Positions 22,042 to 32,465 of a stretch of DNA of 53,112 nt are shown here, one piece after another. Location: positions 1 to 53,112 of the forward strand of contig JANLGW010000077.1 in the NCBI GenBank assembly GCA_024653965.1. Reading direction: 5' to 3'. Source of the DNA: Rhodospirillales bacterium (lineage in GTDB: Bacteria > Pseudomonadota > Alphaproteobacteria > Rhodospirillales > Magnetovibrionaceae). Within the stretch, counting starts at the first letter, position 1. The number at the start of each line of letters is the position of its first letter. The notes beneath the pieces are model-generated. The model saw only the letters and a list, made by a program, of their open reading frames with translations, did not search any database and was not told where the DNA came from. The translations under genes were made by a program, and so were the position numbers.

Positions 22042-23043
22042 ATGACCGAACATCCCTTCGCCCAATACATCCGCATCATCGGACGCGGCCCCAATCTATC
22101 GAGGCCGCTGGACGAAGAAGAAATGTATGCCGCCGCAAAATTGATCCTTTCCGGCGACGTCGAGCCCCTGCAACTGGGCGCGTTTTTGTGCATCTTGCGG
22201 CTGCGAACCGAAGTGGCAGGCGAAGGTGCGGGTTTCGTGCGCGCCGTACGCGATACCATCCAGGTGCCCGCCAACGCCCCTACCGTAGACCTCGACTGGG
22301 CGACTTACTCGGGCAAAAAACGCCAGTTGCCGTGGTACTTGCTGGCGGCCAATCTGCTGGCGCAAAATGGCGTCACCATCTGCATGCAAGGCACCGAGGG
22401 CCACACCGAAGGCCGTCTGTTTTCGTCCCAAGCGCTGGCCCAGTTGGGCGTGCCGCACGCGGGCTCGTTGAGCGAGGCCGCCGAACAGATCCGCGCCACC
22501 AACTTCGCCTATCTGCCGCTACGCAACTTCGTGCCGCGCCTGCAAGACATCATCGAGCTTAAACCCATCTTGGGCGTGCGCTCGCCGGTCAACACCTTTG
22601 CGCGCATGATCAATCCGTTCAACGCCGCGCACGAACTGCAAACCGTATTTCACCCCGCCTACCGCGATGTCCACAGAGACACCGCGCAATTGCTGGGGCA
22701 AAAGCACATGGCCGTGTTCAAGGGCGAAGGCGGCGAAGCCGAACGCCGCCCGCACAAGCCGGTGGTGGTGCAATATTTGCACAATGGCGAACTGAGCGAA
22801 GAACAGTGGCCGCCCATGATCCCCGATCACGACTACGAAAAGGAAGAAGTAATGGACCTTTCGCGCCTACCCAACATCTGGGCAGGCAAAGAAAGCGACG
22901 AATACGGCATTGCCGCCGTGATCGGCACCGCCGCTTACATACTGCGCCTGATGGGCCGCGCCGCCAGCCCCGATGACGCCATCGCCCAGGCCCAGGCGTT
23001 GTGGGACAAACGCGACACCTCGCGCCTGTTTAAAGCCGCCTAA
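22042..23043 (+). CDS. YbiB/TrpD2-like protein of the anthranilate phosphoribosyltransferase superfamily
   Basis: This 333-residue protein has the helical N-domain and glycosyltransferase-3-like core of the TrpD family (LQLGAFLCILRLRTEVAGE, MQGTEGHTEGR, LGVRSPVNTFARMINP). YbiB-type proteins bind nucleic acids and lack proven phosphoribosyltransferase activity. Between dsrP and dsrN it may be a tRNA- or RNA-linked or cofactor-linked accessory, which is inference only. It ends 21 nt before dsrN and has a weak ribosome site. Confidence 0.8.
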   Translation: MTEHPFAQYIRIIGRGPNLSRPLDEEEMYAAAKLILSGDVEPLQLGAFLCILRLRTEVAGEGAGFVRAVRDTIQVPANAPTVDLDWATYSGKKRQLPWYLLAANLLAQNGVTICMQGTEGHTEGRLFSSQALAQLGVPHAGSLSEAAEQIRATNFAYLPLRNFVPRLQDIIELKPILGVRSPVNTFARMINPFNAAHELQTVFHPAYRDVHRDTAQLLGQKHMAVFKGEGGEAERRPHKPVVVQYLHNGELSEEQWPPMIPDHDYEKEEVMDLSRLPNIWAGKESDEYGIAAVIGTAAYILRLMGRAASPDDAIAQAQALWDKRDTSRLFKAA

Positions 23044-23064
23044 CGAGGATCGAAAAACACCGCC

Positions 23065-24477
23065 ATGGGCCACGTTTTCATTTCCGCCGCGCACAAATCT
23101 TCGGGCAAGACCATGGTTGCGACCGGTCTGGCCCGAGCTTTCGCCGCGCGGGGGCTAAACGTGCAGCCGTTCAAAAAAGGGCCTGACTATATCGATCCAA
23201 AATGGTTGGGCGAAGCGGCTGGAAAACCGTGTTTCAACCTGGACTTCAACACCCAATCCAACGAAGAAATTTTGGCCTTTTTCGCCGCCAAAGCCCAAGG
23301 CGCAGATCTTTCGCTGATTGAAGGCAACAAAGGACTGTATGACGGCGTGGATATCGAAGGCTCCGATTCCAATGGGGCGCTGGCCAAACTGTTGAGTGCG
23401 CCGGTAATCTTGGTCGTTGATGCTTCGGGCATTACGCGCGGAGTAGCGCCGTTGTTAATGGGCTATCGCCTATTCGACCCAGAGGTCAATATCCAAGGCG
23501 TGATCTTAAACAAGGTTTTAGGCCCGCGCCACGAAGACAAATTGATCAAGGCCATCGAACGTTATACCGACATCGAAGTGCTGGGGGCGATCAAACGCGA
23601 CGAACACCTAGGCGTGGATGAGCGTCACATCGGCCTGATCCCCAGCAATGAATACCCCCATGCCCGCGCACGCATCGACTTACTGGCGCGGGCCGTTGAA
23701 GAACAAGTTAACGTCGATCGTATACTGGCGATCGCCAACGCGGCCCCCCCCATAGCCGCCCCAAGTTCCGCACCGGATAATGGGCAACAAATGGACGTCT
23801 GCATCGCCGTCGCCAAGGATGCCGCGTTCGGCTTTTATTATGCCGACGACTTAGAGGCCCTGAAACGCGCGGGCGCGCGCATTATATATTTCAACGCCCT
23901 GAAAGACGTTTACCTGCCCACCTGCGACGGGCTGTTTTTGGGCGGAGGATTCCCCGAAACCCAAATGGATAAGCTATCGGCCAATCAGACCCTGCGCGGA
24001 CGGATCAAAGCCGCCATCGAAGCGGGCCTGCCCACCTATGCCGAATGCGGCGGATTGATGTATCTCAGCCGTTCGATCATCTGGGGCGATGCACAGCGCG
24101 ATATGGTGGGCATCGTTCCCGGTGACGCCTTAATGCATCCACGCCCCCAGGGCCGGGGCTATGTGCGCCTGAAGGCCACCGCCGCCCATCCCTGGCCGGT
24201 GCAGGGAAGCGACGCTCAAGGTAGCCTTCCGGCGCACGAATTTCATCATTCGACCTTGGAAAATCTGCCCGGCGATCTCACATTCGCTTATGACGTCTCG
24301 CGGGGGCGCGGCGTCAATGGCTCCCAGGACGGTATCGTCCTGTACAATTTGGTGGCCGGGTACGCACACCTGCGCGACACCAGCCGGTGCCGCTGGGCGG
24401 AACCGTTCACCGCATTTGTGCGCCGCTTAAAACACGCCCGCAACGGCGCTCCCTCGCCTGCGCAAGTGGCCGGATAA
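23065..24477 (+). CDS. dsrN: DsrN, cobyrinic acid a,c-diamide synthase-like glutamine amidotransferase
   Basis: This 470-residue CbiA/CobB-family enzyme is thought to amidate siroheme to the siroamide used by reverse sulfite reductase. The N-terminal dethiobiotin-synthetase-like domain has the ATP loop AAHKSSGKTM. The C-terminal class I glutaminase-like domain has FLGGGFPE and the nucleophile Cys in YAECGGLMYL. Cobalamin biosynthesis is the alternative role. The position behind dsrP and ahead of siroheme genes supports DsrN. Confidence 0.85.
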   Translation: MGHVFISAAHKSSGKTMVATGLARAFAARGLNVQPFKKGPDYIDPKWLGEAAGKPCFNLDFNTQSNEEILAFFAAKAQGADLSLIEGNKGLYDGVDIEGSDSNGALAKLLSAPVILVVDASGITRGVAPLLMGYRLFDPEVNIQGVILNKVLGPRHEDKLIKAIERYTDIEVLGAIKRDEHLGVDERHIGLIPSNEYPHARARIDLLARAVEEQVNVDRILAIANAAPPIAAPSSAPDNGQQMDVCIAVAKDAAFGFYYADDLEALKRAGARIIYFNALKDVYLPTCDGLFLGGGFPETQMDKLSANQTLRGRIKAAIEAGLPTYAECGGLMYLSRSIIWGDAQRDMVGIVPGDALMHPRPQGRGYVRLKATAAHPWPVQGSDAQGSLPAHEFHHSTLENLPGDLTFAYDVSRGRGVNGSQDGIVLYNLVAGYAHLRDTSRCRWAEPFTAFVRRLKHARNGAPSPAQVAG

Positions 24478-24498
24478 TTGACTTAAAGGATTTTGACC

Positions 24499-25296
24499 TT
24501 GAACGAAGCCCAAAAACCCCCGACCAAACCGCATGTGTTCATCGTTGGCGCAGGCCCCGGCGATCCGGGTTTGCTGACCCTCAAGGCTGCAGAATGCTTG
24601 AAAAAAGCCGACGTGGTGGTCTATGACCGCCTGGTGTCGGACGAAATTTTGGACATGGTTCCCGCCCACGCCGAAAAGATTTTTGCGGGCAAGGCCGCCC
24701 GCGATCATTTCATGCCCCAAGAGGAAATCAACCAAACCTTAGTCGATCTGGCCAAACAAAATAAAGTCGTGGTGCGGCTCAAAGGCGGCGATCCGTTCAT
24801 TTTCGGCCGCGGCAGCGAAGAAGCCATTGTGCTGGCCGAACACGGCATCAATTTTGAAGTCGTGCCCGGCATCACCGCGTCGGCGGGATGTGGAGCGTAT
24901 GCGGGCATTCCGCTGACCCACCGGGGCTTGGTCACGGGCGTGCGTTTTGTCACCGGACATTGCCGCGAAGGCCAACACTTAGACTTGAACTGGCAAAGTT
25001 TGGCCGATCCCAACACCACACTGGTGATCTATATGGGGCTGATCAACATCGAAAAAATTTCCAGCGAACTGATCAAAGCTGGACTGCCTGCCGACACTCC
25101 GGCTGCGGGCATCGAACGCGGCACCACGCCGGAACAGCGCACCATTCTCACCACCTTGGAAAAACTGCCCCAGTGCATCCACCGCGCGGAGCTGAAAGCG
25201 CCGTCGTTGCTGATCATCGGCAAGGTCGTGGACTTGGCCAATACCATCGGCTGGCATACCCAGGCGCATCAATGCGTGCTGGATGATGAAACTTAA
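24499..25296 (+). CDS. cobA: Uroporphyrinogen-III C-methyltransferase (SUMT)
   Basis: This 265-residue enzyme methylates uroporphyrinogen III twice with S-adenosylmethionine to give precorrin-2, the siroheme precursor. Motifs are VGAGPGDPGLLTLKA, VRLKGGDPFIFGRGSEEA and VPGITASAGCGAYAGIPLTH. No ATG fits. Two TTG codons lie at 24493 and 24499, and AAAGGA at 24485-24490 sets the start at 24499 (8 nt spacing). The rare start may hold expression low. There is no CysG dehydrogenase/chelatase domain, so the chelatase comes from the next gene. Confidence 0.92.
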   Translation: MNEAQKPPTKPHVFIVGAGPGDPGLLTLKAAECLKKADVVVYDRLVSDEILDMVPAHAEKIFAGKAARDHFMPQEEINQTLVDLAKQNKVVVRLKGGDPFIFGRGSEEAIVLAEHGINFEVVPGITASAGCGAYAGIPLTHRGLVTGVRFVTGHCREGQHLDLNWQSLADPNTTLVIYMGLINIEKISSELIKAGLPADTPAAGIERGTTPEQRTILTTLEKLPQCIHRAELKAPSLLIIGKVVDLANTIGWHTQAHQCVLDDET

Positions 25297-25302
25297 GCAT
25301 CC

Positions 25303-26145
25303 ATGGTCAAAGATGCGCCACGCCCGCCGGACCTTCGGCATGCAGCACTGCTGATCGCCGCGCATGGATCGCCGAACAGCCGAGGCGGGCGCACCGCAAC
25401 ACGAAAAATTGCCCAGGCCATCACCGCAATGGATATGTTCGCTGAAGTATCCGTGGGATTTTTGACCGAAAAACCGTTTATCGCCGATGTGCTGAATGGC
25501 CTTGATGCACCGGAAATTTACATTGTTCCGAACATGGCGGTCAGCGGATATGTCACCACCCGCAAGCTGCCCGATGCGCTGGGCCTCACCGGGCGGGTGA
25601 CCGAACGCATCGGCCCCAAGGGGCATCAACGCGTTTTTCTAACCGAACCCGTCGGCACGCATCCGCTGGTAGCGCGCATTATCGCCAACCGCGTCAAAGG
25701 CGTGATGTCGTCGCTGGCGCTGGATGAAGATGAGGCGGCACTGATTGTCGTCGGTCACGGCTCCACCAAAAGCCGGGAATCGTTCATCCGCACCGAAGGC
25801 GTCGCCAACGAGCTAAGCACCTTCGGAGTCAACATCTCCACCGTCACCGCCTACTTGGAAGAGGCGCCATTCGTGAAAAACTGGCGCAACCTCACCGATG
25901 CACAAACCATCATCTTTTTGCCATTCCTCATCTCAGACGGCTTTCATGGCAGCCAAGATATTCCGCTCGCCATCGGGTTCAAACCAAACGATGCCAAATT
26001 TCAAGACACCTTAAATCAACGGCTGGTCAATGAGATGGTCCACGGTGGGCAGCGCATCCTTTACATCCCCCCCTTAGGCGACGACTTGGATATGCCCGAC
26101 ATCGTGCTGGCGCGGGTTCGCCAAGCGCAAAAGCTTGCGCAATAA
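25303..26145 (+). CDS. CbiX/SirB-type sirohydrochlorin chelatase, two-domain
   Basis: This 280-residue protein has two related halves. The first opens LLIAAHGSPNSRGG and the second LIVVGHGSTKSRES, both with the metal-binding His of CbiX/SirB proteins. It is likely to insert iron into sirohydrochlorin for siroheme. Cobalt cannot be excluded. It lies 6 nt after cobA and ends the biosynthetic run. A separate precorrin-2 dehydrogenase is not seen in the window. Confidence 0.82.
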   Translation: MVKDAPRPPDLRHAALLIAAHGSPNSRGGRTATRKIAQAITAMDMFAEVSVGFLTEKPFIADVLNGLDAPEIYIVPNMAVSGYVTTRKLPDALGLTGRVTERIGPKGHQRVFLTEPVGTHPLVARIIANRVKGVMSSLALDEDEAALIVVGHGSTKSRESFIRTEGVANELSTFGVNISTVTAYLEEAPFVKNWRNLTDAQTIIFLPFLISDGFHGSQDIPLAIGFKPNDAKFQDTLNQRLVNEMVHGGQRILYIPPLGDDLDMPDIVLARVRQAQKLAQ

Positions 26146-26239: not shown

Positions 26240-29200
26240 TTATAGATCGCGGCCCAGGGCTTTGGCAAGTACCATAAACAACTTACCCGTATCGGACGAA
26301 AGAAACGTGTTTTCCAATATGCCATCGTGATCGCCTTCGCGCGCCCGAGCGAGCATGGCGTCGAACTCACCCACATAACGGCCCACATAATCGCGAAAAT
26401 CGCCGTCGTCCTGATACAGGGCCTTGATTGCGGACAGCACATTCTTTTCCTTAAAGCCCAACATCTTGCGAACGAAGATACCCTTCTCGCCCTTGTTGAA
26501 CCGCCGCCAATCGTCTTCGGTAATGGGCACTTCCGCAACGCGCGCCATGTCCACCGCCAACGACTGCAGCTTTTCCGCAATGAACGCCGCGCGGCGCATG
26601 AAATCTTCGGTATGCGCGCGGCCCAAAGTGGTGTCCAAGACCTGATTGAGTTCTTGGGCTTTTTGCGTTGCGGTGAGCAAACTTTCCGTGTTTTGACTGA
26701 CTTTTGCGCCCACGCCTTCCAATTGGCGCGAAACGATTTCCGAGACCCGCGTCAATTCGTTGACGCGCTCGCGTAGTGTCTTATCCCAACTCACCACACG
26801 CGCCAACGAACGCTCGGTCGATTGGGCGACAATATCGCTTTGCTTTTCCAACGCCTCACCCAGCATACCCGCGCCCTGTTGCGCCTTGTTGTACATGCGG
26901 TTGAGTTCGCTCAACTGGCCACGCACACGCTCATGCGTCGCGCTGATGTTCGCAGACAGTTTTTCTGCTTCGTCCGCACTTTCGGCGGTGTGATGTTGAA
27001 TATTCTTGGCGAATACGCTGATGCGGTCCAAGGAACTGTCGGTAATGCGGCCCAAATCTTCACTCTGCCTACCCAGTGAATCGCTCATCTGGCTAAGTTT
27101 AGAAAGCGCCTCTTCCGATACCGCGATAACTTCACGGCCTTGATAACGCAGCGCGTCGGCCACACCTTCCATCTTGGTCGTGGCCTGCGACGATGCCGCA
27201 CCCAATTCGTTCAAGTGTTGACGCAGGTTCTCTCCAGCAGTCCCTAAGCTGCGCACGGTCAAGTCGGAAACCGTGTTCATATCGGCGGTGGACCGACGCA
27301 CTTGGTCGGTAACCCGTTCCAACTCGGCCGCCGCCTGGGCCGATGCCGCGCTAAGATCCGAGGTCTGGTGATGGAAGGCATGGGTTACCAGATCAATCAG
27401 CTTGGCCGCCTTATCGACAGACTGATTCACGCCGTGGACTTCTTCGTTCAAACGTGCGCCCACCGCGCCCAACTTACTGGCCGCCAAATCCGAGACTTCC
27501 ATTAGGCCCGTAGCTTGGCTGTGCATGTCTTCAGAGAACGTGCGGATATGTTCCGAGGCACGGGTATAAACATTGGTCAAGTCGTCCGTGCGACGCGACA
27601 GCAACCCGCCGATGTCTTCCAACCGCACACTGGCCGTGTCGATCGTCGTATCCAACTTGGAAGTATGGCGCTGGAACGTCTCGGCAATGCCTTCCAATCG
27701 ATCGCTCGCGGAATGCGTGGCGCGAATGGCATCATCGGCCCGTTCTTGCAAGTGGCGCGACAACCCTTCCAATTCACGTTCCGCGGCATCAACCCGTTGG
27801 CTAACGATGCGCTCACCTTCGAGCAAGGTATCCGAGACTTGGCGCACACGCGAAACCGATTCATCGGTCACCGCCTGTAGGCTAAATGCGCTATCCTTTA
27901 ATTTTTCACCGGTATCAAGCAAGCGATCGGTGGCGCGAGTACCCAAATCATCCAAGTCGCGGGCATGTTGTTTTAGGGTTACGCCCATTCCGTCAATGCG
28001 TTCCGCCGCCTGCTTGGAGGCATCCGTAAGACCCGCCGTTTGACGATACAGAGCGTCGGACACCAATGAAATCAAGCGAGCCGCACGATCAGAAGCGGAC
28101 CCCACCTCACGCGAACGATCCATCAACGCGGCGGTGGCTTTGTCGACGTCGGCAACTGCGGCGGAAGTCACGCGCTCCACGCTTTCGGTTTGCCCTTCCA
28201 AGGTACGCGATACGCTGACAAGACGATCCGTCGCGCTGTCTGAACTTTCCATCAGTTCGCTCAAGCGTTGGCGCACGGCGTCACCCAACTGGCGCAACCG
28301 TTCCTCGGCGCGTTCGGCGGTGTCTTCCAACTGGTCGCTACGCTCGGACAGATTTTCAGAGGCAGACGCGATCAGCTTGCCGGTGCGGGCGGCAATGAAA
28401 ATCATATGCTCGGTGCGCTTTTGTAGCCCATCGCCAGCATCTTCAAGGTTTTCGGCGGCGTGCGAAGTGATGCCCTCCAAGATGCGCGAGCGATCTTGAA
28501 CCGTATCGCCCAATTCAGAGATGGAATGCACCGCACGTTCCGAAACGTCCCTGATTTCCGCTAAATTGCGGCGGAAGGCATCCGTAATTTCGCCCGTTCG
28601 GACACTTGACGAGTTAATGCTGTCTAGGCCGTCTTTCATGGTGCGCGCCACCGATGCGATCGCCGTAACGCTGGTTTGCGCGCCAGCGGTCACCCGCTGA
28701 GCGCCATCTTCCATGATACGGGTCGCTTCCAACAACGCCACGCGGGATTTCTCCGATGCGCCATCTACATTTGCGGCCCCGACATGCAAAGCTCCCACGA
28801 CCTTATCTAAGCGCTCGACCGAGCCATCGGCAATTTCACGCAAATCCTTGGCCTGCGTTTTAAGCACTTCGGCCGCAGCCAAGACGCGCGCTTCGCTGGC
28901 GTCGCCAGTGGCGTGCAAGAAAGTGGCACGAGCCTCAAGCGTTTTGGCCACGGTTTCCACCTGATCCAAGGCGCGCATGGAAATATTGCTCAAATCCATC
29001 GAGGTTTGACGTAGAATCTCACGCACATCCGCCGTCTGCCGGGCTGCGCCATCGGCGCTATGCACCAACGACTTGGCCTCGGCCTTAAAGGCTTCACCCG
29101 CGGCTTTCATGCGCAACGCGACCAGATCGGACGCCGCCACCAAATCGGAGGCGTGTTCGCCCATGGTTTGTGATATGTCCTTAACACGCGCGGCAACCTT

Positions 29201-30379
29201 ATCAGCAGTTTCGGTCAATGCCTGCGTCTGACGATGCAAACTGCCTTCCACTTCGTTCGCATGCGACGCAGCATCCAATGCCGCGCGCTCCAAATCGGCT
29301 TGGTGTCTGCGCAAGGATTCACCGATACGGTTGCTTTGGCTTTCCATGCGATCGCCGCGCGCCGCCAATTCCGTACCCATGGCGGAAATCAATTCCGACC
29401 CGGTCTCAAGACGTTCCACCGCCTCCACCGTGGTCGAAGAAATGGTCATGATACGTTCCGCCAAGACCTCGCCGACACCTTCGGCGCGCGCCGCCGTTTC
29501 GGCTGAAATTCGCGCCAAATCCTGGGTGCGTTCATGGTACAGGTCCGCGACATCACGGGCGTGGCGCGTGCTGCTATCCGTGGTTTCGGTCAATTCCAAA
29601 ATACGCCGACCCAACACTTCCGTTAGGTCTTCAGCCCGGGTTGAAGCGCGATCGGTAGCGGTGGCCATGTCGTGGGTGCGCCGGTGCAGCACATCGCTTA
29701 CATCGCGTGCACGGCTTTCGGCTTTTTCCGAAACCTGACGCAGATCTTCGGTCTGACGCGCCAACGCTTCGGATACTGCACGGGCGCGCAAATCCGCGTC
29801 CTGGCTCACCCGCGCCAATTCCAACGCGCGTTCACGCACCTGATCATGCACCGCCTCGGCGCGTGCGGCAGCTTCATCGGAAGCCTTAGACAATTCGCGC
29901 GCCTGACGGCGCAACGTTTCAGATATTTCCTTGGCCCGCGTTTCGGCACGATCGGAGGGGTAGGTCAGCTGATTGATCTGCCAACGCAGGTGCGCGGTTT
30001 CGGCACGCAACTGATGGCCGCGCTCGAACAAAGCCACCACCGTCCACAGTAATGCCAGGGGCGTAATCACGCCCGCCGCCAAACCGCCCAACTCGTGGGG
30101 CAGCAGTTCCAATACAAACGCCCAACCGATGTAAGCCTGGATATACCAGACGCTTGCCGACAACCAACCGGCACTAACCAGTACGCCCAAAGCCGAGGCC
30201 ACCCGGTGACGCAGGAAAAACGGCTGTTTGAATTCGTCAAATTCCAGCGGCGCCGATGGCGTCAATGCAGGCCGAAGCTCGGCTTCCGTCACGCCGAGGT
30301 TAAACGCATCCCCAGCCGTAGCGCCTGACGCCCCGTCTTTGTGGCTCGAGTTCATTTGCCCTTGTCTGTCTTCGGCCAT
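26240..30379 (-). CDS. Membrane-anchored giant coiled-coil protein with 45 tandem helical units
   Basis: The protein has 1379 residues if it starts at ATG 30379 (GGGGG 9 nt upstream; ATG 30427 and 30355 are alternatives). A short N-terminal cytoplasmic segment is followed by two hydrophobic spans (about 60-81 and 97-118). Residues 132-1252 are an unbroken run of helical units, 44 of 25 residues and one of 21, with a pattern like xRxTxDLxxxSDxAxxRxxxVxxxL. Residues 1253-1379 form a different, probably globular domain (starting GRAHTEDFMRRAAF). There are almost no Pro or Gly breaks in the rod. The layout resembles large alphaproteobacterial polarity scaffolds such as TipN or the growth-pole-ring protein, but only by architecture. 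It is a single-gene unit with its own terminator. Confidence 0.85.
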   Translation of the reverse strand: MAEDRQGQMNSSHKDGASGATAGDAFNLGVTEAELRPALTPSAPLEFDEFKQPFFLRHRVASALGVLVSAGWLSASVWYIQAYIGWAFVLELLPHELGGLAAGVITPLALLWTVVALFERGHQLRAETAHLRWQINQLTYPSDRAETRAKEISETLRRQARELSKASDEAAARAEAVHDQVRERALELARVSQDADLRARAVSEALARQTEDLRQVSEKAESRARDVSDVLHRRTHDMATATDRASTRAEDLTEVLGRRILELTETTDSSTRHARDVADLYHERTQDLARISAETAARAEGVGEVLAERIMTISSTTVEAVERLETGSELISAMGTELAARGDRMESQSNRIGESLRRHQADLERAALDAASHANEVEGSLHRQTQALTETADKVAARVKDISQTMGEHASDLVAASDLVALRMKAAGEAFKAEAKSLVHSADGAARQTADVREILRQTSMDLSNISMRALDQVETVAKTLEARATFLHATGDASEARVLAAAEVLKTQAKDLREIADGSVERLDKVVGALHVGAANVDGASEKSRVALLEATRIMEDGAQRVTAGAQTSVTAIASVARTMKDGLDSINSSSVRTGEITDAFRRNLAEIRDVSERAVHSISELGDTVQDRSRILEGITSHAAENLEDAGDGLQKRTEHMIFIAARTGKLIASASENLSERSDQLEDTAERAEERLRQLGDAVRQRLSELMESSDSATDRLVSVSRTLEGQTESVERVTSAAVADVDKATAALMDRSREVGSASDRAARLISLVSDALYRQTAGLTDASKQAAERIDGMGVTLKQHARDLDDLGTRATDRLLDTGEKLKDSAFSLQAVTDESVSRVRQVSDTLLEGERIVSQRVDAAERELEGLSRHLQERADDAIRATHSASDRLEGIAETFQRHTSKLDTTIDTASVRLEDIGGLLSRRTDDLTNVYTRASEHIRTFSEDMHSQATGLMEVSDLAASKLGAVGARLNEEVHGVNQSVDKAAKLIDLVTHAFHHQTSDLSAASAQAAAELERVTDQVRRSTADMNTVSDLTVRSLGTAGENLRQHLNELGAASSQATTKMEGVADALRYQGREVIAVSEEALSKLSQMSDSLGRQSEDLGRITDSSLDRISVFAKNIQHHTAESADEAEKLSANISATHERVRGQLSELNRMYNKAQQGAGMLGEALEKQSDIVAQSTERSLARVVSWDKTLRERVNELTRVSEIVSRQLEGVGAKVSQNTESLLTATQKAQELNQVLDTTLGRAHTEDFMRRAAFIAEKLQSLAVDMARVAEVPITEDDWRRFNKGEKGIFVRKMLGFKEKNVLSAIKALYQDDGDFRDYVGRYVGEFDAMLARAREGDHDGILENTFLSSDTGKLFMVLAKALGRDL
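26624..29986 (-). repeat. Coding tandem array: 45 helical units of 75 bp (one of 63 bp)
   Basis: Dividing the translation from the RWQINQL segment to the DTTL segment gives 1121 residues, which is 44 x 25 + 21. The register (conserved Leu at unit position 7, Ala/Ser/Asp near 11-15, hydrophobic at 21 and 25) holds throughout. The 21-residue unit (KDGLDSINSSSVRTGEITDAF) lies at about residues 582-602. At DNA level the units are well diverged. Confidence 0.9.
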
Positions 30380-30720
30380 GTGTGGCTGCCCCCGGTCAAT
30401 CTTTGTGCAGGAGAATACACCCGTCATATAGGGCGGTAAACAGGAACAATGTACTAGATATTGATATTATTGGGGCTTTTTGGCCTAGTAAAACCCCAAA
30501 ATGTGTATGGTTCGACGCCCATCGTGTGGATAAATGTGGATAACTCAGGCCCCCTGCAGCCTAGCCTTACACGATCATCGATTGTGCTTTCCACATATTA
30601 AACAACTTCGTTTATTTTAAAAGCGATAAGCAATTAATTAGAATCGTGCTAATTTTCGTTTGGGCTTTCAGACACCCATCCCACATTAGGGATGTTTGAT
30701 TCTGTTTTTTTGGAGGAACT
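30380..30720. other. Intergenic region with paired DnaA-box-like sites and AT-rich tract
   Basis: Two copies of TGTGGATAA lie at 30525-30533 and 30535-30543, same orientation, 1 nt apart. An AT-rich tract (30595-30660) follows. The region should hold divergent promoters for the coiled-coil gene and the PAS gene. No gene was found. Confidence 0.6.
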
Positions 30721-31248
30721 ATGGCTACAAGTGCACACCTCACTGGCGTAGAACGTTTTTTTAACGACGATGAAATTATCGTCAGCAAAACTGACACCAA
30801 AGGCCGACTGACCTACGTCAACGACGTTTTCCTGAGACTCGCCGGCTACACCGAAAAAGAATGCCTGGGCCAACCGCATAGCATGATCCGCAACCCCAAC
30901 ATGCCTCGCTGCATCTTCAAATTGTTATGGGATACCATCGAAAGCGGGCGCGAAATCTTCGCCTACGTCGTCAACCGTTCCGCCAATGGCGATCACTATT
31001 GGGTTCTGGCCCACGTCACGCCCAGCCGCGACGCCAATGGCAACATCATCGGGTACCACTCGAATCGGCGCACCCCAAACCGTCAAATTCTCGACAGCAC
31101 GATCACCCCGCTTTACCGGCAACTGCTGGCCGAAGAAAATAAACATTCCAACAGCAAGGACGGCATGGCGGCGTCGATGAAAATATTGACGGGCCTTCTG
31201 GCGCAAAAAGGTGTTGAATACGACGAATTTATTGCCGGTATCCTATAA
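30721..31248 (+). CDS. Aer-like PAS sensor protein (single domain)
   Basis: This 175-residue soluble protein has a PAS fold spanning about residues 15-125. The segments [30 protein letters not shown] and [13 protein letters not shown] match the FAD-binding aerotaxis receptor PAS domain. There is no membrane anchor or signalling domain; the tail after about 130 is helical. GGAGGA lies 4 nt before ATG. The next gene is a receptor without its own sensor, so the two probably act together as a split redox/oxygen receptor. Confidence 0.88.
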
Positions 31249-31313
31249 ACACTACCCACAAGGCGGCCCCCCATTTTCGCCAATCATCGGTGAATCAAAA
31301 GGATCATAAAAAC

Positions 31314-32465
31314 ATGTTTGGTAGCAGTAACTCCAACGCGATCAAAAAAGCTTTGGCCGCTTGCAAGGCCGTGGCCGCAGGCGATTTTGAGGCCCGCGTC
31401 ATCGGCATTACGGAAAAAGGCGAAGCCGGAGAATTGCTTAATGCAATCAATCTGTTGATTGACCGCTGCGACGCTTATGTTCGTGAATCCCAGGCTTGCC
31501 TGGAACATGTGCGCGACAACAAATACTACCGCCGCATTCTCGAAAAGGGCATGACCGGCAGCTTCCTCGGTGCCAGCCGCGTGATCAACAACGCCACGCA
31601 AGCGATGGAAGACAAAGTTGTCCAATTTAAGGGCGTCGCAGAAAACTTTGAAGCCAACATGAAAGGCGTCGTCGACACCGTCGCTTCGGCTTCAACCGAA
31701 CTGCAAGCAACAGCGCAAACGATGGAAAGAACGGCGCAGCAAACCTCTACACAGTCGGTCGCCGTCGCCGCCGCGGCAGAACAAGCATCCGCCAACGTGC
31801 AGACCGTTGCTTCTGCGGCGGAAGAACTGTCCAGCTCGATCTCTGAAATTTCCCGCCAAGTTTCCCAAAGCACGCAAATTGCCGGGGCCGCCGTGATCGA
31901 GGTCGATGGCGCCAATGACAAGGTTCAAGGCCTAGCGCAGGCCGCGCAGAAAATCGGCGAAGTCGTCGCCTTGATTACGGACATCGCCAACCAAACCAAC
32001 CTGCTGGCGCTGAACGCAACCATCGAAGCGGCGCGCGCGGGCGAAGCGGGCAAAGGTTTCGCCGTCGTGGCATCGGAAGTGAAAAACCTAGCCAACGCCA
32101 CCGCCAAGGCGACGGAAGAAATCTCCGACCACATTTCGGGCATTCAAACAGCGACCCATGACGCCGTACAGGCCATCGGTTCCATCGGTGGAACCATCCG
32201 CCAAATGAACGAAATCGCCTCGGCGATTGCCGCCGCCGTCGAAGAACAGGGCGCCGCCACCCAGGAAATCGCCCGCAACGTCGAACAGGCCGCCGCCGGG
32301 ACATCCGAGGTGACGACCAACATCACCCAGGTAACCAGCGCCGCCGGCGAAACGGGGCACGCCGCTGGCGAGGTGCTCACCGCCGCGAGCGAACTGTCCA
32401 AACAGGGCGAACTGCTCGGCCACGAAATGGACGAATTTATCGTCGAATTGAAAAAGGTCGTCTAA
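31314..32465 (+). CDS. Membrane-free methyl-accepting chemotaxis protein
   Basis: This is a 383-residue cytoplasmic receptor. The first 130 residues form HAMP-like helices ([36 protein letters not shown]). The rest is the signalling hairpin with tip [20 protein letters not shown]. No hydrophobic span is present. ATG 31314 is preferred over GTG 31290 because AAAAGGATC precedes it. It lies 65 nt after the PAS gene and is probably co-transcribed. It lacks a CheR pentapeptide. Confidence 0.92.

What the first reader, a model, noticed from the sequence alone, without database searches (positions are those of the whole stretch)
26624..29986. Forty-five consecutive helical units, 44 of exactly 25 residues
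The rod of the giant protein divides without remainder into 25-residue units except for one of 21 residues. That is 1121 residues = 44 x 25 + 21, and the count matches the full protein length exactly. A 25-residue period is seven turns at 3.57 residues per turn (7+7+11), unlike a plain heptad coil. The exact conservation of length while sequence drifts suggests strong selection on rod pitch. The lone 21-residue unit equals loss of about one helical turn and could be a deliberate kink or skip.
Basis: seen in the sequence. Interest (0 to 1): 0.78.

Follow-up and report, generated by a model that had tools for sequence, protein, structure and literature searches.

The report
Membrane-anchored 25-residue coiled-coil giant protein
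A very long rod-shaped bacterial protein, related to the scaffold that organises cell growth at the pole in rhizobia, is built from 25-residue units and has kept exactly the same rod length in many distant relatives although most of its sequence has changed.

Summary
The 1395-aa minus-strand protein (26240-30427) has a 1121-residue rod with a true 25-residue repeat (autocorrelation z about 18 at lags 25-100; hydrophobic period 3.57). It has 45 units, one of 21 residues. It looks like a distant RgsE/GPR-type protein: two N-terminal TM helices, a helical rod with one proline, and a C-terminal domain homologous to that of S. meliloti RgsE (tblastn E 2e-18). RgsE's rod repeats every 22/11 residues, this one every 25. 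The new part is length: the conserved ends are exactly 1127 residues apart in 34 of 65 proteins on its side of the tree (identity to the window down to 26% where measured); most differences are multiples of 7, 11, 25, 29 or a 196-residue block. Other groups are fixed at 717 (18 of 19), 837 and 848 (5 of 5 each); several vary. SMC is frozen even more often (18 of 21), AddB never (0 of 28). The 21-residue unit is three heptads lacking the 4-residue stutter; the seam continues and the unit is conserved, so a kink is unlikely. Register constraint explains the quantised changes; whether the rod is also a ruler (about 167 nm) is open. Oligomeric state and cell role are inferred.

The parts
26240..30427 (-). 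Giant coiled-coil protein, 1395 aa from the first ATG; likely start at Met17 (30379), 1379 aa
   Evidence: ORF; matches in 38 of 41 genomes searched, the window's own included; GGGGG site before Met17 and homologue N-termini
30134..30202 (-). TM helix 1 (residues 76-98)
   Evidence: Hydropathy; AF2 helix at residues 75-100
30014..30082 (-). TM helix 2 (residues 116-138), conserved LLPHELGGLAAG..TPLALLW..ERG
   Evidence: Alignment; hydropathy; AF2 helix residues 110-155
29951..29962 (-). YPSD helix break (residues 156-159) with the rod's only proline (157)
   Evidence: 1 proline in 1121 residues; break in the AF2 helix
26624..29986 (-). Rod: 45 units, 44 x 25 + 1 x 21 residues; family consensus RRQTEELTRASDRAAARLEEVGEAL, core positions 3, 6, 10, 13, 17, 20, 24
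28574..28636 (-). The 21-residue unit (residues 598-618), lacking the 4-residue stutter
29762..29836 (-). Unit 3 (residues 198-222), the most conserved unit of the rod
   Evidence: Mean column entropy 0.83 bits over 33 exact-length rods
28049..28123 (-). Unit 26 (residues 769-793), a conserved mid-rod landmark, candidate binding site (inference)
   Evidence: Entropy 1.35 against 1.99 and 1.90 in units 25 and 27
26243..26605 (-). C-terminal helical domain (residues 1275-1395)
   Evidence: Alignment A1; found in 152 of 387 sampled class genomes; homologous to the RgsE C-terminus; AF2 best-model pLDDT 84, five models 67-84

Best explanation
The protein is a membrane-anchored cytoplasmic scaffold of the RgsE/GPR type. 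Two TM helices hold its N-terminus in the inner membrane. A proline break then starts one nearly continuous alpha-helical coiled coil of about 1121 residues (up to about 167 nm if straight), which ends in a small helical docking domain. The rod's seam repeats every 25 residues (three heptads plus one 4-residue stutter), giving a long, weakly left-handed supercoil. Helices must stay in register along the whole rod, so small indels are purged and length changes mostly by whole seam-preserving units; this freezes the length within many clades. By homology the protein probably organises a polar or growth-zone assembly. Shown: TM/rod/C-domain anatomy, homology of the C-terminal domain, periodicity, length freezing and mostly quantised changes. 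Inferred: oligomerisation as a coiled coil, straightness, sidedness, localisation and cell role.
For: 25-residue period and 3.57 seam. Narrow hydrophobic stripe and 1 proline in 1121 residues. TM hairpin and an unbroken helix over residues 159-274, block pLDDT 78-97. C-terminal domain shared with S. meliloti RgsE: tblastn over all plasmid records E 2e-18, 36% over 116 aa, and a 4-sequence profile search E 1.9e-35. N-terminal region of the Shinella and S. meliloti proteins by blastp in the same 4 sequences, E 2e-8 and 4e-7 (these stretches include the start of the rod). Exact 1127 in 17 of 29 proteins and 34 of 65 rows; 717 in 18 of the other 19 rows; 837 and 848 in 5 of 5 each. Best window offsets other than zero are all multiples of 25. 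Of 17 derived differences that I picked, 15 are multiples of 7, 11, 25 or 29 (expected 28%; P 4e-7). Controls: SMC exact in 18 of 21; AddB 3-18 gap events in 28 of 28.
Against: No test of oligomeric state: AF2 was run on monomers, and a monomer helix would look the same if it did not coil. The N-terminal profile does not hit RgsE or its kin (0 of 4), so homology beyond the C-terminal domain rests on weak blastp and shared topology. Pfam Apolipoprotein is under its cut-off here (26.7 of 90 bits) but far over it in RgsE (257.8). Length is not fixed everywhere: 31 of 65 rows on the window's side differ from 1127; families f54, f61, f80, f91, f112, f133 and f33 vary, some by only 1-2 residues; one relative differs by -1. 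SMC is more strictly frozen than this rod. The 717, 713 and other short distant rods differ from 1127 by amounts that are no simple multiple (-410, -414, -276). The modules of the quantisation test were chosen after seeing the data; on differences under 60 alone the test is weaker (9 of 10, P 0.009). Function was not tested; the literature says the Rhodospirillales homologues may have a different role (PMC7327166, passage).
Confidence: 0.62

Rival explanations
1. Molecular ruler: the rod sets a fixed distance (about 167 nm here, about 106 nm in the Magnetospirillum-type group, if straight) between membrane anchor and C-terminal domain, so length itself is selected, beyond mere register.
For: Exact length kept in 34 of 65 rows although unit-sized gains and losses are possible and do occur (+200, +175, -171); several groups each with its own fixed length; SMC arms, which work only in certain length regimes (PMC5344682, passages), are also frozen in these genomes.
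Against: Close relatives tolerate large unit-sized changes (L058 1127 versus L054 1327; L031 +588, L057 +784); several families vary. Diverged units may recombine rarely (inference), so register alone could freeze length.
Confidence: 0.25
2. Apolipoprotein-like lipid-binding rod: the amphipathic units lie on the membrane rather than on each other.
For: Weak Pfam hits to Apolipoprotein (E 5e-6) and ApoLp-III; GPR is described as an apolipoprotein (PMC8262873).
Against: 26.7 bits against a cut-off of 90; hydrophobic stripe of only about 60-115 degrees and no proline between units; strict 3.57 seam.
Confidence: 0.1
3. ZorA-type tail or phage tape-measure protein.
For: PADLOC ZorA hits, best E 2e-18; PHROG tape-measure hits, best E 2e-8; NCBIfam ZorA E 4e-5, far under its cut-off.
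Against: The best stretches cover the rod (one runs 25 residues past it) and ZorA profile positions from 297 on; Pfam shows no MotA/ExbB domain at E up to 1; the neighbours scanned are cobalamin, PAS and chemotaxis genes; matches in 38 of 41 genomes, with cobalamin-gene synteny in part of the loci, look like a core gene.
Confidence: 0.03

Closest known systems
RgsE (Sinorhizobium meliloti, 2089 aa) / GPR (Agrobacterium, 2115 aa) growth-pole proteins
   Same: Two N-terminal TM helices, giant helical rod, homologous C-terminal domain (tested on the 2089-aa S. meliloti protein). GPR itself was not compared by sequence.
   Different: Rod period 22/11 (3.66) against 25 (3.57); apolipoprotein score over the cut-off only in RgsE; N-terminal profile not shared; total lengths 2089 and 2115 differ between RgsE and GPR (papers)
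SMC coiled-coil arms
   Same: Length frozen in the same genomes; functional arm lengths follow a periodic pattern (PMC5344682, passages and one section)
   Different: ATPase head and hinge in SMC; only a weak, under-cut-off SMC hit here, of the kind coiled coils give
Rod proteins with long non-heptad super-repeats: myosin II (28, stated in PMC5344682); Scy/FilP (51) and giardin/SF-assemblin (29) recalled, not from a call
   Same: Long super-repeat laid over a coiled-coil seam
   Different: Other repeat lengths; the window rod has no strong axial charge band at 25 or 28; sequence homology not tested

Membership tests
RgsE/GPR growth-pole family | Two N-terminal TM helices with the bulk of the protein cytoplasmic | tested here: met
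   TM pair by hydropathy and AF2; sidedness inferred
RgsE/GPR growth-pole family | Homologous C-terminal domain | tested here: met
   tblastn E 2e-18; 36% over 116 aa and profile E 1.9e-35 in a 4-sequence search
RgsE/GPR growth-pole family | Very long, nearly continuous alpha-helical rod | tested here: met
   1121 residues with one proline; AF2 continuous helix, modelled for about the first five units only
RgsE/GPR growth-pole family | Apolipoprotein A1/A4/E (PF01442) match over cut-off and 22/11 repeat | tested here: not met
   26.7 of 90 bits against 257.8 in RgsE; period 25
RgsE/GPR growth-pole family | Localises to the growth pole and shapes the cell | not testable with these tools
   Needs microscopy; homologues in other orders are noted as possibly having a different role (PMC7327166, passage)
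Pfam Apolipoprotein | Score over the gathering cut-off of 90 bits | tested here: not met
   26.7 bits
ZorA (anti-phage) | MotA/TolQ/ExbB membrane domain | tested here: not met
   Best stretches start at ZorA profile position 297 or later and no MotA/ExbB family among the Pfam hits at E up to 1
TipN (Caulobacter polarity protein) | Homology of N-terminal TM pair and C-terminal domain | not tested
   No named Caulobacter sequence was at hand; the resemblance in architecture is recalled

The most novel reading that the evidence does not exclude
Alphaproteobacteria carry a family of membrane-anchored coiled-coil rulers whose gauge (25/7, 29/8 or 11/3 residues per seam step) and, in many clades, length (717, 749, 837, 848, 921, 956, 1127 or 1157 residues between anchors) are fixed clade by clade. 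Length evolves by whole seam-preserving modules, and the rod sets a defined distance between the inner membrane and a C-terminal docking domain that builds the growth-pole ring or an equivalent.
Probability: 0.25. Interest if true: 0.82.

Novelty: new variant of a known kind. Interest (0 to 1): 0.62.

Why it matters
Giant RgsE/GPR proteins help to organise polar growth, by a mechanism that is not settled in the papers I saw, and GPR is classed as an apolipoprotein. This work links them, by a shared C-terminal domain, to proteins in 152 of 387 sampled class genomes. It indicates that the rod is the variable part, with lineage-specific seam periods and lengths fixed in many clades. That turns 'what does the rod do' into a direct test: change its length by 25 residues or by 3. 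It also supplies a natural series of tolerated coiled-coil length changes, comparable to what was assembled for SMC arms (PMC5344682).

Tried and rejected
Family libraries on the whole protein gave matches of the coiled-coil kind, all under the cut-off where one exists: Pfam Apolipoprotein and ApoLp-III; NCBIfam MCE (E 8e-11, 41.7 of 140.5 bits), SMC and ZorA; PHROG tape measure and PADLOC ZorA, which show no cut-off. The C-terminal domain had no Pfam match and no clear PDB sequence relative (best E 0.006, a de novo protein). Its AF2 model had no significant Foldseek match (best E 0.32), and VIA-align gave Z at most 6.8 over mixed helical bundles; this shows neither a new fold nor a known one. 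Own-genome search with PF01442 found only weak hits elsewhere and did not list the window gene, and 13 of 14 control genomes gave hits under the cut-off, so that family says little at low score.

Myosin-like axial charge banding was tested and not seen at 25 or 28 in 7 rods. A full supercoil turn as the reason for the 196-residue block could not be tested: the turn is 166-450 residues depending on the assumed helix. The PAS and MCP genes next to the window gene were matched in 0 and 2 of 67 named loci over 9 kb, the two being Magnetospirillum-type. CcfM of Magnetospirillum and TipN were considered and not compared by sequence.

Rows dropped before counts: 5 of 34 proteins (4 cut by contig ends at the N side, 1 at the C side) were not measured; fragmentary genomes (G014, G030, G032, G039) were not extracted. 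11 of 80 named loci lacked an N anchor. L094 (-121), with a doubtful N anchor, was left out of the tree. The named loci overlap the unnamed relatives; the 84 tree rows are distinct. For the class survey I fetched 60 of the 152 matching genomes, roughly one or a few per family and mostly the longer proteins; 8 of 60 first gave no C-domain and 1 too short a rod, so periods are for 51; a second extraction found the C-domain in 60 of 60, but 10 had no measurable rod. For family replicates 40 more were fetched, families chosen by me from those with several members. Family f35 had no N anchor, 0 of 5 rods measured. SMC was compared in 21 and AddB in 28 genomes, the full-length copies among the loci returned; AddB used G013 as reference because the window genome's copy is cut. 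The conservation profile used 33 of the 34 exact rods. The quantisation test used 17 values that I picked by eye from the tree as separate lineages, one per nested series; -189 (L064), the nested values and the 717 group were left out; the base rate assumes integers 1-250 although one picked value (588) lies above that.
Full report
OBSERVATION. The finding's coordinates are residues 148-1268 of the minus-strand ORF 26240-30427. Cut at 25, then one unit of 21 at residues 598-618, then 25 again, the rod gives 45 units with no remainder. The period is far above chance: autocorrelation z about 18 at lags 25, 50, 75 and 100; hydrophobic Fourier peak 3.57, the nearest listed peak to 3.5 being 3.52 with a thirtieth of its power; cyclic profile score +940 bits against a maximum of -324 in 50 shuffles, with a profile that was trained on this rod among 17. 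Weak points are the end of unit 45 and units 40-41. Three relatives (L008, L009, L010) show a pair of compensating phase jumps near index 990-1027 without net length change. The consensus RRQTEELTRASDRAAARLEEVGEAL has core positions 3, 6, 10, 13, 17, 20, 24, i.e. steps 3-4-3-4-3-4-4: three heptads plus a 4-residue stutter, the same as 7+7+11.

THE 21-RESIDUE UNIT. Dropping 4 residues removes the stutter and leaves three heptads; the seam stays continuous. The profile puts the same +4 jump at index about 450-471 in 17 of 17 exact-length proteins and in 25 of 25 named exact-length loci (8 proteins are in both sets; in two proteins it is split into two jumps that sum to +4). It is therefore an old fixed feature of this rod, and a kink is not needed to explain it; no structure of it was predicted. 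Many relatives have a second +4 jump at the end of the rod. The 717 group lacks the unit and has another irregularity at index 200-209.

WHAT IT IS. Residues 75-100 and 110-155 form a helical hairpin with the TM stretches in the AF2 model; the helix breaks at YPSD and continues unbroken to the end of the modelled stretch, residues 159-274. The rod has one proline and no cysteine in 1121 residues. The last 120 residues are conserved: 25 relatives are 42-83% identical to the window's domain, and it occurs in 152 of 387 sampled class genomes at E up to 1e-5. A tblastn search of plasmid records found the domain in six, among them a 3.7-Mb S. meliloti record with a 2089-aa 'kinesin' next to cytochrome bc1 genes, E 2e-18. 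RgsE is described as 2089 aa (PMC7327166, passages read), so I take this as RgsE; no SMc locus tag confirms it. The domains align at 36% over 116 aa. That paper already says that more distant RgsE homologues exist in Emcibacterales and Rhodospirillales, so the family link is known in outline. I did not find the 25-residue repeat or the length behaviour in print (literature searches; open-licence library only). The GPR paper PMC8262873, of which I read the first two of six parts and passages, has no occurrence of 'repeat' or 'period' in its main text. The nearest named organism among the loci is Magnetovibrio blakemorei (tree).

ROD LENGTH ACROSS RELATIVES. Between fixed anchors (RWQINQLTYPSD and DFMRRAAF) the window protein has 1127 residues. 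Of 29 measurable proteins of 38 genomes with a match, 17 including the window have exactly 1127. Ungapped identity to the window is 67% down to 26%. Sliding 70-residue windows fit best at offset 0 in all 31 windows for 11 of 16 proteins and in 23-28 of 31 for the other five; every exception is at +-25 or +-50, as expected of repeats without indels. Among 80 named loci 69 could be measured: 25 at 1127, 17 at 717, 27 at other values. On an 84-row tree (N-terminal part, first 150 rod residues, last 30 rod residues and C-terminal domain), 34 of the 65 rows on the window's side of a fully supported branch are exact, spread over its depth including early branches; of the 19 rows on the other side 18 have 717 and one 713. 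The least number of length changes is 28. The tree is a quick search with long branches among the 717-type and early rows.

QUANTISED CHANGES. Differences from 1127 are +7 (four, one clade), -7, -22, +11, +22 (four), +44, +55 (two), +66, +88 (two), +110, +121, +220; +116, +174 and +232, which are 4, 6 and 8 x 29, with -4 phase jumps about every 23-36 residues; +175 and +200, 7 and 8 x 25; -171, 6 x 25 + 21, with the 21-residue unit gone; +196, +588 and +784, multiples of a 196-residue block of seven 25s and one 21. In L031 and L057 tandem 196-residue copies are up to 89% identical over 150 residues. Misfits: -1 (L020); -189 (L064, a multiple of 7 without a clear module); -121 (L094, doubtful anchor); and the distant short rods at -410, -414 and -276. 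Some of the listed multiples of 11, such as +220, have messy phase paths (L060).

CLADE-FIXED LENGTHS ELSEWHERE. In the wider class (families chosen by me) 749 (3 of 3 measured), 848 (5 of 5, 37-83% identity), 837 (5 of 5, 31-76%), 1157 (4 of 5), 921 (4 of 5), 956 (3 of 4) and 786 (3 of 4) are fixed within families. Families f54, f61, f80, f91, f112, f133 and f33 are not, or only in pairs; f33 differs by single residues. Rods above about 1300 residues are mostly variable.

SEAM PERIOD BY LINEAGE. Of 51 unnamed class proteins whose rod could be analysed, the strongest lag is a multiple of 25 in 36; five long ones, like RgsE and Shinella, peak at 22/11 with a seam of about 3.66; two peak at 29 with 3.62; the rest are mixed or weak, as is Sphingomonas.

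CONTROLS. SMC, whose arm length is functional (PMC5344682), has exactly 1021 residues from Walker A to signature in 18 of 21 genomes of the same set, window included, at 51-77% identity; the three exceptions differ by -1, -2 and -4. So exact freezing is not unique, and SMC is frozen more often than the giant rod; but the rod does it at lower identity. AddB, of like size, has 3-18 gap events and a net length change in 28 of 28 comparisons at 46-75% identity.

MECHANISM. Shown: anatomy, periodicity, length behaviour, C-terminal homology. Inferred: the narrow seam packs helices in register, so mostly seam-preserving changes survive; the supercoil is long and weakly left-handed (arithmetic); the C-terminal domain docks partners; the protein scaffolds a pole or growth zone as RgsE/GPR do. 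C-terminal deletions of GPR block complementation (PMC8262873, abstract). Register alone explains the quantisation. A ruler role would explain in addition why whole-unit changes are rare in many clades, but large unit-sized changes in close relatives speak against a strict ruler.

VERDICT. A real, well-kept feature of a known but poorly understood protein family, with a new rod variant and an unusual, testable length behaviour.

Noticed in passing
22042-26145: Cobalamin-type genes (CobB/CobQ-like, tetrapyrrole methylase, CbiX) beside the giant gene; the methylase was matched in 30 and CbiX in 17 of 67 named loci over 9 kb.
   Followed up: partly
30721-32465: PAS-domain protein and a protein with MCP signalling domain next to the giant gene; matched in 0 and 2 of 67 loci.
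   Followed up: partly
L123:1602-1970 and L125:6149-6442: An annotated Hpt-domain gene lies divergently just upstream of the family gene in both S. meliloti and Sphingomonas; possible phosphorelay link.
   Followed up: no
L123: RgsE-like protein annotated 'kinesin', in a 3.7-Mb record with cytochrome bc1 genes labelled plasmid pSymB; both labels look wrong to me.
   Followed up: no
2670-2748: Tandem repeat of 22 bases, 3.5 copies.
   Followed up: no
L031 and L057 rods: Tandem 196-residue super-repeats, up to 89% identical, with a +4 phase jump (a 21-residue unit) every 196 residues.
   Followed up: partly
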